Below are positions 52,939-58,847 of a stretch of DNA of 64,000 nucleotides, one piece after another (within the stretch, counting starts at the first letter, position 1; the number at the start of each line of letters is the position of its first letter). The position numbers were made by a program, and so were the translations under genes. The notes beneath the pieces are model-generated. The model was not told the DNA's origin and made no database searches. It saw only the letters and a program-made list of their open reading frames with translations. Source of the stretch: Methanococcoides methylutens MM1 (GTDB taxonomy: Archaea; Halobacteriota; Methanosarcinia; Methanosarcinales; Methanosarcinaceae); assembly GCF_000970325.1 (NCBI RefSeq), contig NZ_CP009518.1, positions 1,488,001-1,552,000 on the forward strand, given 5' to 3'.

Positions 52939-55047
52939 TCATTCAGGAGACAAAGGAACACTAAAACCAAACGTGCTTCCAACACCGTGTTCACTTTCGA
53001 CCCAAACATTACCACCATGCATATCTACTAATTTTTTAACAAGGGAAAGGCCAAGACCTGTTCCTTCAAACTTGCGATTCGAAGCTGAATCCACCTGTGT
53101 AAAAGGATGAAATAGATTATCTTGTTCCGACCTTGGAATTCCAATGCCTGTATCTTCAACTTTGATGACTAAAGAGTTAGTATTCCTTTTGACCCTGATA
53201 ATTACTGAACCGTCATCAGGAGTGAACTTAATAGCATTTGAAACCAGATTGAAAATTACCTGCTTTAATTTTAACTTGTCAGCATTAATGCAAAAATTAT
53301 CAGATTCAACAATTGTATCCAGGAATAAGTCCTTGTGCTTCGCAAGAGGAGAAACAATTGACAATACTTCATCCAACATATCTAAAAATATGAATGTTTC
53401 ATAGTGAAGCTCCGCTTTACCAGCTTCTATCTTTGAAAGATCAAGAATATTATTAATAAGACTTAATAAATGCCTGCCACTCTTAGATATATTCGAAATA
53501 TATCTAATTTGTTTATCATTAAACAAACCTTCATCATTATAGAGAAGGATATCTGAAAATCCAATAATAGAGTTCAAAGGAGTACGAAGTTCATGGCTCA
53601 TATTAGCCAGGAATTCACTTTTTAATTTATTTGATGCCTCTGCGTTGGACTTTGCTTCTAAAAGGGCTTTTTCTATCTTTTTGCGTGCAGTTATATCTCT
53701 GGAAATGCTCAGAATAGCTACGTTACCATTATATTCGATAAAATGGGCGCTCATTTCAACTGGAATTTCAGATCCATCTTTTCGAAGATGTACCATTTCA
53801 AAGATGCACCCACCAGTATGGAAAAAATCAGTCATCTTTTTGTGGAAAACCGCCACACATTCCGGGCTGAATGTATCAAGTATGTTCTTCTTCAACAATG
53901 TGTCTCTTGTGTAACCTAGCCACTCACATAATTTGTCATTCACTTCATAAATATAACCCGTTAGATCGTAAAGGGAAACTGCATCATTTGAATGATCAAA
54001 GAGAGTTTTGAACCTTAGCTCTGTTTTTTTTAGAGCTTCTTCTGCAAGTTTCTTTTCGGTAATATCTACAATAATTCCCTGAAAACGAGTTGGTTGTCTG
54101 GAATTATCTAACTCTATAAGTGACGTTTCAGTTACCCACCGAATATTACGTTCAGAATCTATTATCCTATATTCTTTTGTAAATTCTGAGTTGCCATTTT
54201 TCATGCATTCAGAAAAGGACAAAAAATAATCAGAAACATCCTCAGAATGAATTATATCCTCATAAAGTACCTTATCAGACATTAGACATGCTGCTGAATA
54301 TCCAAACTGGGATATGTTCTCAGAAACGAATTCAACAGGAAAACCGTTTTCCGAGTTCCTGAGAAATGCCACCACCGGGCTGTTCCTATAGATCGATTTC
54401 AGCTCTTTTTCCTTCTTCATTAACTCGGGAGAAGTTCGCAGGTGTTTCCTGTACTTGCTACTGAGTTGATCTACCAGGTTGATCCACCCCCCTTCCGCCT
54501 TCATGATAATCTTTTCCCGATCATCCATCAATTCGAGAAACTCTGAAGAAGAAAAAGACTCAAGCGAGGAGGTAAATAAGGTAGTAAGATAGAAAACCGA
54601 ACTTAAGGAAATTATAGAATTTTGACACTCTCTTAGAAAAGGAAGCATCTCAACTTCATCTCTGATAAGATCGATATTGATACTCAATCCATTAAATCCA
54701 TTTTCAATAGCATATTTCTGTTTATTTTCTATAATTTCCATTATAGCATTGCAATATGCACCCGCATCAGAGAATAAATTTGGGTTAATAAGAACAAGAT
54801 CGAAATTGGGGGAACAGGAATTATGATCTTCATAGATTGCACTTTGCCTGAAAAGCTCACCCATGTTTTCATTATCTTTTGTCCCGGGAGTAAGCCAAAC
54901 ACATAGATCATGACGTTCAAAACCTGAAGCTAAGAAAGAGTGGACAAAATCAATTACATTGTCATCATCTTTATAAATAAGAGTGAGGTGTTCGCCGCAA
55001 GGAACATCTGATACAGGCAATTTGATTTTTCTTGAATATCCATACAT
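52939..55047 (-). CDS. MEDS-PAS-PAS sensor histidine kinase
   Basis: 702 residues, no transmembrane helices. The N-terminal MEDS domain (about 1-190; HLTLIYKDDDNVIDFVHSFL) is the sensory module of methanogens and methylotrophs. Two PAS domains (about 228-335 and 345-455) follow, then HisKA with MSHELRTPLNSI near 480 and HATPase with NLVSNAIKFT near 595, DTGIGIP near 633 and GTGLGLSL near 665. A soluble kinase with no receiver gene adjacent. The next gene upstream is a free MEDS protein 73 nt away. Confidence 0.92.
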   Translation of the reverse strand: MYGYSRKIKLPVSDVPCGEHLTLIYKDDDNVIDFVHSFLASGFERHDLCVWLTPGTKDNENMGELFRQSAIYEDHNSCSPNFDLVLINPNLFSDAGAYCNAIMEIIENKQKYAIENGFNGLSINIDLIRDEVEMLPFLRECQNSIISLSSVFYLTTLFTSSLESFSSSEFLELMDDREKIIMKAEGGWINLVDQLSSKYRKHLRTSPELMKKEKELKSIYRNSPVVAFLRNSENGFPVEFVSENISQFGYSAACLMSDKVLYEDIIHSEDVSDYFLSFSECMKNGNSEFTKEYRIIDSERNIRWVTETSLIELDNSRQPTRFQGIIVDITEKKLAEEALKKTELRFKTLFDHSNDAVSLYDLTGYIYEVNDKLCEWLGYTRDTLLKKNILDTFSPECVAVFHKKMTDFFHTGGCIFEMVHLRKDGSEIPVEMSAHFIEYNGNVAILSISRDITARKKIEKALLEAKSNAEASNKLKSEFLANMSHELRTPLNSIIGFSDILLYNDEGLFNDKQIRYISNISKSGRHLLSLINNILDLSKIEAGKAELHYETFIFLDMLDEVLSIVSPLAKHKDLFLDTIVESDNFCINADKLKLKQVIFNLVSNAIKFTPDDGSVIIRVKRNTNSLVIKVEDTGIGIPRSEQDNLFHPFTQVDSASNRKFEGTGLGLSLVKKLVDMHGGNVWVESEHGVGSTFGFSVPLSPE

Positions 55048-55120: not shown

Positions 55121-55750
55121 TCAACAAGTGTGTGAAAGAGAGCATTGCTTCATGCATTTGCTACTGACCATGTCCACCAGATCCGTCCACATTCCATTCG
55201 TTTTCAGGATCGTTTTTTCCCGGCCATCAGCCAGTTCAAGGACCTCTGAAGAGGATAATGAATCCATAGGGCATGTGAACAATGTTGTAAGGTCCATAGC
55301 TGAAGTTGAAGAGATAATAGATTCCCGGCACTGTTTGAGGAAAGGAAGCATTTGACCTTGATTTGTGATCAGGTCAACATTGATCCGCAGGCCATTAAAA
55401 CCGCTTTTAAGAACATATTTCTGCTTTTTTTCAATAAGTTCCAGTATAGAATTACAGAACAAACTCACATTTGAAAGTATTTCTGGATTTACAAGAACAA
55501 GATTGAAATTCGCAGAACAAGAATTATGGTTTACATAAATCGTATTTTCTTTGAAAATATTATCCGTATATTCTTTAGCTTTCATCCCAGGTGTAATCCA
55601 TACGCATAGATCGTTTCGCCTGAATCCGGACCTTAAAAAAGATGAAACAAAATCAAGTGCATCATCATCATTTTTATAAACCAGCGTTATATGGTCGCCA
55701 TGAGGAACGTCTGATATAGGCAAACCAATTTTCCTTGAATGTTCCTTCAT
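55121..55750 (-). CDS. Stand-alone MEDS-domain protein (truncated kinase paralogue)
   Basis: About 209 residues from ATG 55750, preceded by AAAGGTGT; the frame is open to 55792. Clearly paralogous to residues 1-200 of the kinase at 52939 (HSRKIGLPISDVPHGDHITL versus YSRKIKLPVSDVPCGEHLTL), but it stops in a Cys-rich tail (CMKQCSLSHTC) before the kinase part. Either a functional free sensor domain that could dimerise with the kinase or a recently truncated copy. Confidence 0.8.
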   Translation of the reverse strand: MKEHSRKIGLPISDVPHGDHITLVYKNDDDALDFVSSFLRSGFRRNDLCVWITPGMKAKEYTDNIFKENTIYVNHNSCSANFNLVLVNPEILSNVSLFCNSILELIEKKQKYVLKSGFNGLRINVDLITNQGQMLPFLKQCRESIISSTSAMDLTTLFTCPMDSLSSSEVLELADGREKTILKTNGMWTDLVDMVSSKCMKQCSLSHTC

Positions 55751-56003: not shown

Positions 56004-56516
56004 ATGTCCCTCTTATCAAAAAATGAACTTAAAGAGCTTGTACTTGCGAATCCGCCTCTTGTAGAGAACATGATCGACATGGATATCCAGCTCCAGCCCA
56101 ATGGTGTGGAAATGACACTTCAGGAGGTCAGGAGCATTGATGGAGCAGGAGCAGTGGACTTTGACAATTCAGGAAGGAAGATATCAGGTGGGAAAAGGAT
56201 CGAATTCGATGAGAACGGCTGGATACACCTCGACCCCGGCATATACAAGGTCCTTTTGAATGAGGTCGTCAACATACCGAAGACACTGGCAGCGATCGCT
56301 AAACCCCGTTCCAGCCTTATCAGGTGCGGAGCCACCCTTGAAACTGCTGTATGGGATGCAGGATATTGTGGAAGGAGCGAATGCATGCTTGTAGTACACA
56401 ATTCCGCAGGGTTCGATCTTCAGAAAGATGCACGTATAATGCAGCTTCTTTTCTACCACCTTCACACAGAAGTGGAAGAAGGTTATTGTGGAAGATACCA
56501 GCATGAGAATATCTGA
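56004..56516 (+). CDS. dut: Archaeal-type dUTP diphosphatase (dCTP deaminase/dUTPase family)
   Basis: 170 residues. QLQPNGVEMTLQEV near residue 31 and KPRSSLIRCGATLETAVWDAGY near 100-120 (split here by family blocks) hold the nucleotide site, with AGFDLQKDARIMQLLF near 140. It removes dUTP and supplies dUMP. TATATATAA at 55872-55880 is a good TATA box, giving a leader of about 100 nt. A decayed second copy lies at 57801. Confidence 0.9.
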   Translation: MSLLSKNELKELVLANPPLVENMIDMDIQLQPNGVEMTLQEVRSIDGAGAVDFDNSGRKISGGKRIEFDENGWIHLDPGIYKVLLNEVVNIPKTLAAIAKPRSSLIRCGATLETAVWDAGYCGRSECMLVVHNSAGFDLQKDARIMQLLFYHLHTEVEEGYCGRYQHENI

Positions 56517-56711
56517 TGTGATATTTTGCTGACTTCTAAGTGAGAAACGTGAGATGCCGCATGAATGTGTCCGGATACCATTAGTATCCATTCGTTTCAA
56601 GAAGATCATTTATAGGATATTCATGTTCATCCGGCATTCACATCCATACGGAACATAAAGGAAAATGGATCGTTTGTATACTAAAAAGTTAAGCATTGAC
56701 CATTGATCCAT

Positions 56712-56891
56712 TTAAGGACCCTTCTGCAAGTTTCCTTTCAGTAATTTTGAAAGCTCAAATGCTTTCTTGTAAGCTTTTGATACTTCCTCATGATTCCCTA
56801 AGTTTGTAAGCACATCACCTTTTTTCTACCAAGTAATTTGGAACTGGGAATCAATCTCTATTGCTTTGTAGCCCTTAATGCACCGTCCAAA
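56712..56891 (-). pseudogene. Remnant of a TPR-repeat gene
   Basis: The minus strand encodes two tetratricopeptide units, GYKAIEIDSQFQITW and KGDVLTNLGNHEEVSKAYKK, then FELSKLLK to TAA at 56714-56712. They are in one frame but split by TAG at 56828-56826, where a Tyr codon is expected. No start or further repeats. A decayed piece of the large TPR proteins common in Methanosarcinaceae. Confidence 0.65.
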
Positions 56892-57009
56892 CGTTATATA
56901 TACAAGTAGTAGTATCCCCTGTTAAAACAACTTTTATTTACTGAGGGCAATTTTTGTTGACTAAAGTGTAAAGACAAGAGAATTATGAGGAGGAACTAAT
57001 ATTTCATAC

Positions 57010-57645
57010 TTGCAGATTGCGGAAAAAGCTATTGACAAGCTCCATAACACAAAAGGAGTGGAAAAAATATTTCTTCTTGATGAATATGATCGAAAGGAGA
57101 TAATCCACCTTGAAAAAAAGGATGAGCAGATGTCACCATTGGGTTTTGGTAAAAAACACAATGCAGGAATGAAGCGGGCACTTAGATCTGATATATTAAT
57201 ATCTTTTTTGACAAACAGAGAATATGACTGGCCAAAGAATAACCTAAAATTAATTCACCGGGGAGAAATCATCGGAGAAGACATTAGTGACCCTGATGAG
57301 ATCAACAGACTGAAACAGTCCGAACATCACTTATTTGGCAATATAGTCATATATAGCCATAAATTTGAAAAATTCAAAGAAGCCTGCGAACCCCCTGTGA
57401 TGCATATCAATGCCAACCCTTGTCCGGAAATTGAAGAAATAGCCCCTGTTTCTGAAGCTATAATAGCATCGCCATCGAGATTAACCGATAAATACATTAA
57501 ATCCAAAATAAACTCCAGAAATGAAATTCATATAGGAAGCTTCCTTGTAGGGGTAAATCTAGATAATACGTCTTTGGAGAAATCCTCAAATGAGTTAGAT
57601 GCAACCTTGACAGGTATGTCAAGACCATGTATTCAGTTTGCTTAA
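57010..57645 (+). CDS. Orphan protein of unknown function between gene remnants
   Basis: 211 residues from TTG 57010. The better-placed ribosome site GAGGAGG (56987-56993) sits 7 nt before ATT 57001, which is in frame, so the true start may be a non-standard ATT giving three more residues. TTATATATA at 56894-56902 is a good TATA box. No family recognised. The protein is hydrophilic with KKHNAGMKRALRSDILISFL in the middle and no signal or membrane segment. An intact frame amid decayed genes suggests it is either recent or selected. Confidence 0.65.
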   Translation: MQIAEKAIDKLHNTKGVEKIFLLDEYDRKEIIHLEKKDEQMSPLGFGKKHNAGMKRALRSDILISFLTNREYDWPKNNLKLIHRGEIIGEDISDPDEINRLKQSEHHLFGNIVIYSHKFEKFKEACEPPVMHINANPCPEIEEIAPVSEAIIASPSRLTDKYIKSKINSRNEIHIGSFLVGVNLDNTSLEKSSNELDATLTGMSRPCIQFA

Positions 57646-57797
57646 GGATTTCTACAGAGCCCATTTTTCTTCTTCATCAACTCCGGAGAAGATCGCAGGT
57701 GTTTTCTGTACTTGCTGTTAAGCAGGTCTGTCAGGCTGGTCCACAGACCATTCTTTTTCATGATGGTGTTGTCCCGACCAGCCATAAGTTCAAAGAC
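57642..57797 (-). pseudogene. Remnant of a MEDS kinase gene
   Basis: Minus-strand translation reads VFELMAGRDNTIMKKNGLW, then SKYRKHLRSSPELMKKKNGL to TAA at 57644-57642. This matches the MEDS-to-PAS linker of the kinase at 52939 (EFLELMDDREKIIMK...SKYRKHLRTSPELMKK). A stop lies just before the homology and everything else is missing. Confidence 0.8.
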
Positions 57798-57800
57798 GTT

Positions 57801-57998
57801 TTATGAAGAAAAGATCTTCGAGAGCTTGTACTTGCAACCCCCCTCTTTTGAAGAACATAATTAATATGGACACCCAGCTTCAGCCCAATGGTGTGGAGAT
57901 TACCCTTCAGAAGGTCAGGACCATTGAGGGTGCAGGGGCATTCACGCAGAAGTGGAAGAAACATGTTGTGGAAGATAACAGCATGATAATCTCTGACA
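57801..57998 (+). pseudogene. dut: Decayed second copy of dut
   Basis: Nucleotide similarity to 56015-56518 runs from the start codon region through QLQPNGVEITLQKV, then jumps by internal deletion of about 300 nt to the last codons (GAAGTGGAAGAA...) and past the stop. A one-base deletion near 57835 also shifts the frame. No product expected. Confidence 0.85.
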
Positions 57999-58055
57999 TG
58001 ACAATAAGTAACACCTACGCAAAGGATATGTAATATAATAGGAATCTCCCGTAGC

Positions 58056-58847
58056 ATGAGTGAAATTGGCAAATCTGTCAGGATGGAGCGTATTTTCGAC
58101 AGAAATACGGGTAATGCTATAATAATACCAATGGACCATGGTGTCGGTGCAGGACCTATCAAAGGTCTGATCGACATGCCATCAACCGTAAATAAGGTTG
58201 CAGAGGGCGGTGCAAATGCTGTCCTTGGCCACATGGGACTTGCAAAACACGGGCACCGTGGCTATGGAAGGGATGTAGGACTTATCATTCATCTCTCCGG
58301 TTCCACTGCACTGGGACCTGATCCAAACCACAAGGTCCTTGTCACAACCGTTGAGGAAGCTATAAAGGTCGGTGCAGATGCGGTCTCTGTCCACATCAAC
58401 GTCGGTGCAGATGATGAAGCGGAAATGCTCCAGGATCTCGGATATACCGCAAAGAAATGTGACGAGTGGGGAATGCCACTTCTGGCAATGACATACCCAA
58501 GAGGTGCAAAAGTTGTATCCGAGACTGACGTGGAATACGTGAAGCACGCAGCAAGGGTTGGTGCTGAACTTGGTGCTGACATCGTCAAGACAAGCTACAC
58601 TGGCGACCCTGATTCTTTCAAAGAGGTAATTGACGGCTGTCCGGTCCCTGTAGTGATTGCAGGCGGTCCACAGATGGACACCGAAAAGGAGATACTTGAA
58701 ATGGTCTACGATGCACTTCAGGTCGGCTGCAAGGGTGTCGCAATGGGCAGGAATGTGTTCCAGTCCGATAATACAACAAGACTTGTGACCAGGATCTCAA
58801 AGGTCGTCCACGGCGAAATGACAGCAGACGAAGCCATGGAAGACTAA
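58056..58847 (+). CDS. aroA': 2-amino-3,7-dideoxy-D-threo-hept-6-ulosonate synthase (DhnA-type aldolase)
   Basis: 263 residues of the archaeal class I aldolase family. [10 protein letters not shown] near residue 25, the Schiff-base Lys in [10 protein letters not shown] near 178, and VIAGGP near 200 and [10 protein letters not shown] near 230 form the phosphate site. It begins the archaeal route to dehydroquinate and aromatic amino acids; a fructose-bisphosphate aldolase role is the alternative. The usual partner aroB' is not adjacent. The first codon lies 58 nt after the dut remnant. Confidence 0.88.

What the first reader, a model, noticed from the sequence alone, without database searches (positions are those of the whole stretch)
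57642..57998. Decayed duplicate of the whole MEDS-dut locus
The intact order is MEDS protein (minus, 55121-55750) then dut (plus, 56004-56516). Downstream the same divergent order appears as fragments: a MEDS-kinase piece (minus, 57642-57797) directly followed by a dut piece (plus, from 57801) with an internal deletion and a frameshift. This is best explained by a tandem duplication of the locus that then decayed. It also explains why the intact MEDS protein looks like a truncated kinase.
Basis: seen in the sequence. Interest (0 to 1): 0.55.

Follow-up and report, generated by a model that had tools for sequence, protein, structure and literature searches.

The report
Decayed remnant of duplicated kinase–dut pair
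Next to an intact sensor-kinase and dUTPase gene cluster in a methane-producing archaeon lies a broken second copy; relatives suggest that the broken copy sits at the original site and the neighbouring copy took over, an ordinary case of gene duplication and loss.

Summary
Window 57658-57812 (minus) is a piece of a MEDS-PAS histidine kinase gene (codons ~165-216). Window 57801-57996 (plus) is a dut remnant with a 1-base and a 307-base deletion. Both score far above shuffles. The genome is a Methanococcoides. Three of 11 Methanococcoides genomes carry an array (kinase HK1, MEDS protein, dut1, remains of a second kinase–dut copy, ADHS); six of 11 have one kinase–dut–ADHS unit. dut lies just before ADHS in 13 of 20 named loci, so the broken copy occupies the ancestral site and the intact neighbour is the other copy. 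The kinase piece resembles full kinases more than this genome's short MEDS gene (114/155 against 86/155), so the claim that it explains that protein is not supported, although the MEDS gene of one relative (G004) matches at 113/155. The duplication is older than the split from the sister genome, probably as old as a six-species clade, and dut2 decayed differently in the three array genomes. Ordinary gene birth and death; low interest.

The parts
52939..55047 (-). HK1: intact MEDS-PAS-PAS-HisKA-HATPase histidine kinase, 702 aa
   Evidence: ORF; Pfam HATPase_c, HisKA, PAS_3, PAS_9; MEDS 22.5 bits, below its 29.8 cut-off
55121..55750 (-). stand-alone MEDS-domain protein, 209 aa from ATG
   Evidence: Pfam MEDS 33.8 bits, over its 29.8 cut-off; present beside HK1 also in G003 and G004
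56004..56516 (+). dut1: intact dUTPase/DCD-family gene, the only intact copy found in the genome
   Evidence: NCBIfam PRK02253 210.6 bits, cut-off 130
56689..56745 (-).
   Evidence: 302-nt alignment of window 56450-56745 to G003 at 86%, running from the dut1 end into the HK2 tail; in G003 HK2 is an open frame
56746..57657 (.). about 0.9 kb of inserted or replacing sequence with no blastn match in the same interval of G003 or G004
   Evidence: 56746-57010 also without a DNA match elsewhere in 11 genus genomes
57010..57645 (+). ORF of 211 aa (TTG start) inside the insert, family without a Pfam name
   Evidence: homologues in 33 of 60 genomes, its own included
57658..57812 (-). kinase remnant, codons about 165-216 (end of MEDS domain and linker); the last 12 bases overlap the dut alignment
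57801..57940 (+). dut2 remnant, 5' part (dut1 56013-56153, codons ~4-50), one base missing near 57835
57941..57996 (+). dut2 remnant, 3' end (dut1 56461-56516) after a 307-base internal deletion
57997..58055 (+). dut-ADHS spacer of the ancestral type, with a stretch shared by the six-species clade
   Evidence: similarity to the spacers of G005, G009 and G010 was reached by 0 of 500 shuffles in each comparison
58056..58847 (+). ADHS: 2-amino-3,7-dideoxy-D-threo-hept-6-ulosonate synthase, the ancestral right-hand neighbour of dut
   Evidence: TIGR01949 374 bits, cut-off 299.45; next to dut in relatives

Best explanation
An ancestral Methanococcoides locus, kinase (minus)-dut (plus)-ADHS (plus), was duplicated in tandem, with further copies of the kinase's 5' part, at or before the divergence of a six-species clade. 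dut was then redundant, so one copy was free to decay. In this genome the copy next to ADHS, at the ancestral position, lost most of its kinase gene, its divergent intergenic region and about 60% of dut through several deletions, and about 0.9 kb of other sequence took the place of part of the rest. The upstream copy (HK1, MEDS protein, dut1) stayed intact and now supplies dut. Shown: the remnants, their order, the deletions, the arrays in two relatives and the usual dut-ADHS adjacency. Inferred: that the copies arose by tandem duplication rather than transfer, the number of rounds, and that the dut 3' end survives because it abuts the ADHS promoter.
For: Remnants far above shuffles. Gene order in 11 genomes: array in G000, G003, G004; single kinase-dut-ADHS in G001, G005, G006, G008, G009, G010; dut-ADHS without kinase in G007; neither neighbour found in the 16 kb taken of G002. 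dut is followed by ADHS within about 0.7 kb in 13 of the 20 named loci (all 5 Methanococcoides, 8 of 15 others). dut2 remnants differ: G000 keeps codons ~4-50 and the 3' end, G004 only about the last 35-47 codons, G003 about the last 13-27. HK2 in G003 and G004 stops at about the same place (347 and 346 aa), which points to one origin. HK1, MEDS and HK2 dS between G003 and G004 (0.77, 0.58, 0.75) are no lower than rpoB and ADHS (0.57, 0.54), so no recent transfer is seen. mcrA and rpoB trees join G004 with G005 and both with G009 and G010, apart from G000+G003, so an array shared by G004 and G000/G003 points to an ancestor of all six. A tree with all array-genome copies as one clade is weakly rejected (p-AU 0.031 and 0.039; the groups were named after a first tree had been seen).
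Against: G005, G009 and G010 show no trace of HK1, MEDS or a second dut in the 3.8-5.8 kb held left of their kinase (blastn and tblastx at E 0.01, where the control rang; same result), so an old array needs clean losses there. The kinase piece of G000 is nearer the single kinases of G010, G005 and G009 (131, 126 and 126 of 155) than HK2 of its sister G003 (89 of 155 ungapped; 97 of 137 with gaps), so G000 may hold remains of two different copies; the short pieces do not settle this (p-AU 0.155). dut dS is 0.46-0.70 in 10 of 11 pairs, positional orthologues included, and does not date the dut duplication; mcrA dS is far lower than that of rpoB (0.07 for G003-G004), so the yardstick depends on the gene. 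The flank of dut1 shows no clear similarity to the dut-ADHS spacer, so the right-hand breakpoint is unknown.
Confidence: 0.72

Rival explanations
1. One reading: a tandem duplication of the MEDS-dut locus of this genome, whose downstream copy decayed; the short MEDS protein is a by-product.
For: Same divergent order and about 80% nucleotide similarity; the MEDS gene of G004 matches the kinase piece at 113/155.
Against: In this genome the piece is HK-like (114/155) rather than MEDS-like (86/155); two other species have the array; dut1 of G000 and G003 are 96.5% identical while the remnant is about 83% identical to either (162 and 160 of 196), so the copies split before G000 and G003 did.
Confidence: 0.07
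2. The upstream HK1-MEDS-dut1 block was acquired by recombination from another Methanococcoides lineage beside the native unit, which then decayed (transfer rather than duplication).
For: HK1 and MEDS fall outside the group of HK2 and the G005/G009/G010 kinases (96/94 support); all-copies-one-clade weakly rejected; patchy distribution and no trace in G005, G009, G010.
Against: No donor among the 11 genomes; dut1 lies within the six-species dut group; dS between G003 and G004 copies fits vertical descent.
Confidence: 0.2
3. Chance similarity or shared domain repeats, not a copied locus.
For: Only the presence of many PAS/HisKA paralogues in the genome.
Against: Scores 72-143 against shuffle maxima of 28-33; order and spacing match relatives.
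Confidence: 0.01

Closest known systems
Tandem duplication of archaeal two-component genes (census PMC5847659, passages seen)
   Same: [quoted passage not shown] here too kinase copies lie side by side.
   Different: The copies here are diverged, include a neighbouring metabolic gene (dut), and include kinase-less MEDS and MEDS-PAS versions.
MEDS-domain histidine kinases of Methanosarcinaceae, e.g. MA2082 of Methanosarcina acetivorans (PMC11784639, passages seen)
   Same: Kinases with a MEDS sensor domain.
   Different: The object here is a broken piece of such a gene; no direct comparison with MA2082 was made.
Archaeal dUTPase/DCD family (NCBIfam PRK02253)
   Same: dut1 is a clear member.
   Different: The remnant keeps about 38% of the gene (196 of 513 bases), with a frameshift.

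Membership tests
Pseudogene from tandem duplication | sequence similarity to an adjacent intact locus beyond chance | tested here: met
Pseudogene from tandem duplication | same gene order and orientation as the intact unit | tested here: met
   kinase minus then dut plus
Pseudogene from tandem duplication | reading frames disabled | tested here: met
   1-base deletion, 307-base deletion, no kinase codons before ~165 or after ~216 found next to it
Pseudogene from tandem duplication | copies descend from one unit within the lineage | tested here: inconclusive
   remnants too short: four clades tested gave p-AU 0.12-0.41, two further clades were in the best tree without firm support
   86/155 to MEDS against 114/155 to HK1 in the same genome; but MEDS of G004 gives 113/155
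dUTPase PRK02253 (dut1) | score over the curated cut-off | tested here: met
   210.6 against 130 bits
Pfam MEDS PF14417 (HK1) | score over the gathering cut-off | tested here: not met
   22.5 against 29.8 bits; the short protein reaches 33.8, and HK1 is 56% identical to it over residues 1-206

The most novel reading that the evidence does not exclude
The locus is a small gene nursery: repeated partial duplications of one MEDS kinase have spun off kinase-less MEDS and MEDS-PAS proteins that are kept by selection (dN/dS 0.14-0.29), while the co-duplicated dut copies were lost in different ways in different species, so that positional and true orthology of dut and the kinase no longer agree across Methanococcoides.
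Probability: 0.4. Interest if true: 0.35.

Novelty: new member of a known kind. Interest (0 to 1): 0.2.

Why it matters
It is a worked example of gene birth and death in an archaeal genus: a housekeeping gene is kept by one copy while the copy at the old site erodes. It warns that the kinase, and perhaps dut, may be mixed paralogues across Methanococcoides. It also suggests that stand-alone MEDS and MEDS-PAS proteins can arise from a kinase by partial duplication.

Tried and rejected
Rejected: chance similarity. Not favoured: the fragment as a copy of this genome's MEDS gene (the MEDS gene of G004, 113/155, speaks against a flat exclusion). Tried without support: similarity of the dut1 3' flank to the dut–ADHS spacer, which by eye in G004 looked like the right-hand breakpoint, was no better than shuffles (G004: 312, 373 and 393 of 500 shuffles equal or better; G003: 320, 189, 57; G000: 244, 350, 353). 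Similarity of the HK1 upstream stretch to the kinase–dut spacer: of 12 comparisons two were low (8 and 37 of 300 shuffles), ten ordinary (100 or more of 300). dS of dut as a clock was not informative. Trees of the short remnants do not resolve their nearest relative. No remnant of HK1, MEDS or dut1 was found left of the kinase in G005, G009 and G010 (repeated with a positive control). In one search the mcrA and rpoB dS values were wrong, because wrong reading frames were picked; they were discarded and redone. The concatenated mcrA+rpoB tree failed to run; only the two single-gene trees are used. A short peptide in the insert had no second copy in the genome. ORF211 had no match over a cut-off in Pfam, NCBIfam or PADLOC, nor did four homologues in Pfam; sub-threshold Pfam matches only (AAA-ATPase_like 0.081, DUF4080 0.22). 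Paper searches: one search listed 12 of 536 papers and one search listed 6 of 6; none of the listed titles or abstract starts is on this locus; two papers were seen as passages.

Full report
OBSERVATION. The window lies in a 2,394,636-base single-contig genome of a Methanococcoides: the five closest dut genes of the named-genome scan are from Methanococcoides at 83-90% protein identity. The dut remnant therefore lacks one base near 57835 and 307 bases between 56153 and 56461. Local scores of 103, 143 and 72 compare with maxima of 33, 31 and 28 in 200 dinucleotide shuffles each. The genome holds one intact dut and this remnant.

WHICH GENES. The kinase (52939-55047) has PAS, HisKA and HATPase domains and a MEDS match below the Pfam cut-off; the 209-aa protein at 55121-55750 passes the MEDS cut-off and is 56% identical to the kinase's first 206 residues. 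dut1 is NCBIfam PRK02253 and 58056-58847 is ADH synthase. Matches of the kinase remnant (ungapped, of 155): single kinases of G010 131, G005 126, G009 126, G006 121, G008 120, G001 114; HK2 of G004 119; HK1 of G003 117, G004 116, G000 114; MEDS of G004 113, G003 88, G000 86; HK2 of G003 89 (97/137 with gaps). So it is closest to full kinases. The MEDS genes of G000 and G003 are far off; the MEDS gene of G004, whose frame is longer (229 aa), is not, so an old MEDS-type source is not excluded by these numbers alone.

RELATIVES. In 11 Methanococcoides genomes: G000, G003 and G004 have the order HK1, MEDS, dut1, second kinase-like copy (remnants only in G000), dut2 remnant, ADHS. G001, G005, G006, G008, G009 and G010 have one kinase–dut–ADHS unit. 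G007 has dut–ADHS without the kinase, and in G002 neither neighbour was found in the 16 kb taken. The remnant before ADHS is thus at the ancestral site.

G003 and G004 carry HK2, open frames of 347 and 346 aa that keep the MEDS and first PAS regions but end before the kinase part. dN/dS between them is 0.14, so HK2 looks like a kept gene there. In G000 a 302-nt alignment at 86% to G003 runs from the end of dut1 into the HK2 tail and stops at 56745; 56689-56745 is this tail. From 56746 to about 57657 there is no blastn match in the same interval of G003 or G004. This stretch carries an ORF of 211 aa whose homologues occur in 33 of the 60 genomes searched, its own included, all 33 in the same taxonomic family, with no Pfam or NCBIfam match over a cut-off (four homologues in Pfam).

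AGE. mcrA and rpoB trees group G000 with G003, and G004 with G005 inside a group with G009 and G010 (the position of G009 and G010 is unresolved for rpoB). The array in both G004 and G000/G003 therefore points to an origin at or before the ancestor of all six, with loss in G005, G009 and G010, or to transfer. dS between G003 and G004 is 0.77 for HK1, 0.75 for HK2 and 0.58 for MEDS, against 0.57 for rpoB and 0.54 for ADHS: no sign of recent transfer; mcrA dS is much lower (0.07). HK2 of G004 is not the strict orthologue of the G005 kinase: dS 0.85 against rpoB 0.15, and that pairing is rejected (p-AU 0.0008 on the MEDS domain, 3e-126 on 340 columns). A single clade of all array-genome copies is weakly rejected (p-AU 0.031 and 0.039; groups chosen after a first tree was seen). 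dut dS is 0.46-0.70 in 10 of 11 pairs tested, positional orthologues such as G005–G009 (0.65) included, and says little. The dut remnant is about 83% identical to dut1 of G000 and of G003 (162 and 160 of 196) while those two are 96.5% identical: the duplication is older than the G000/G003 split. G005, G009 and G010 keep no detectable trace of the array left of their kinase.

DECAY. dut2 was lost differently in each array genome: G000 keeps codons ~4-50 and the 3' end, G004 about the last 35-47 codons, G003 about the last 13-27. All three keep the 3' end and the spacer before ADHS, which holds a stretch shared by the six species. That this is the ADHS promoter is my inference, and would explain its survival.

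LITERATURE. Passages of PMC5847659 state that there is in many cases evidence of tandem duplication of archaeal two-component genes and that MEDS is a sensor domain of methanogen kinases. Passages of PMC11784639 describe MA2082 as an orphan cytoplasmic MEDS kinase. Neither search listed a title or abstract start on this locus.

VERDICT. A real remnant of a kinase–dut unit beside an intact paralogous unit. Ordinary biology, low interest.

Noticed in passing
57010-57645 (+): 211-aa ORF in the insert belongs to a protein family with homologues in 33 of 60 genomes searched (its own included), two or three matches in each of the 11 Methanococcoides genomes, without a Pfam, NCBIfam or PADLOC match over a cut-off.
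   Followed up: partly
56715-56819 (-): Short open stretch, TPR-like by eye only (not tested), running from the insert across the HK2 tail in another frame; no second copy in the genome.
   Followed up: partly
L035:7749-8855 (G004) and the matching place in L034 (G003): HK2: kinase-less MEDS-PAS proteins of 346-347 aa with dN/dS 0.14 between the two genomes, probably functional.
   Followed up: yes
L039, L040, L043 (kinase gene beside dut): The single kinase of G006 has an in-frame stop at codon 75, and those of G001 and G008 have open frames of only 490 codons although similarity goes on, so this kinase may be eroding in the other Methanococcoides clade too.
   Followed up: partly
window 54748-55047 (-), HK1 residues 1-100, against HK1 of G004 in L035: The start of the MEDS domain of HK1 differs far more between G004 and G000 (49% identity) than the rest of the kinase (82-87% from residue 207 on), as if the sensor domain evolves fast or was exchanged.
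   Followed up: no
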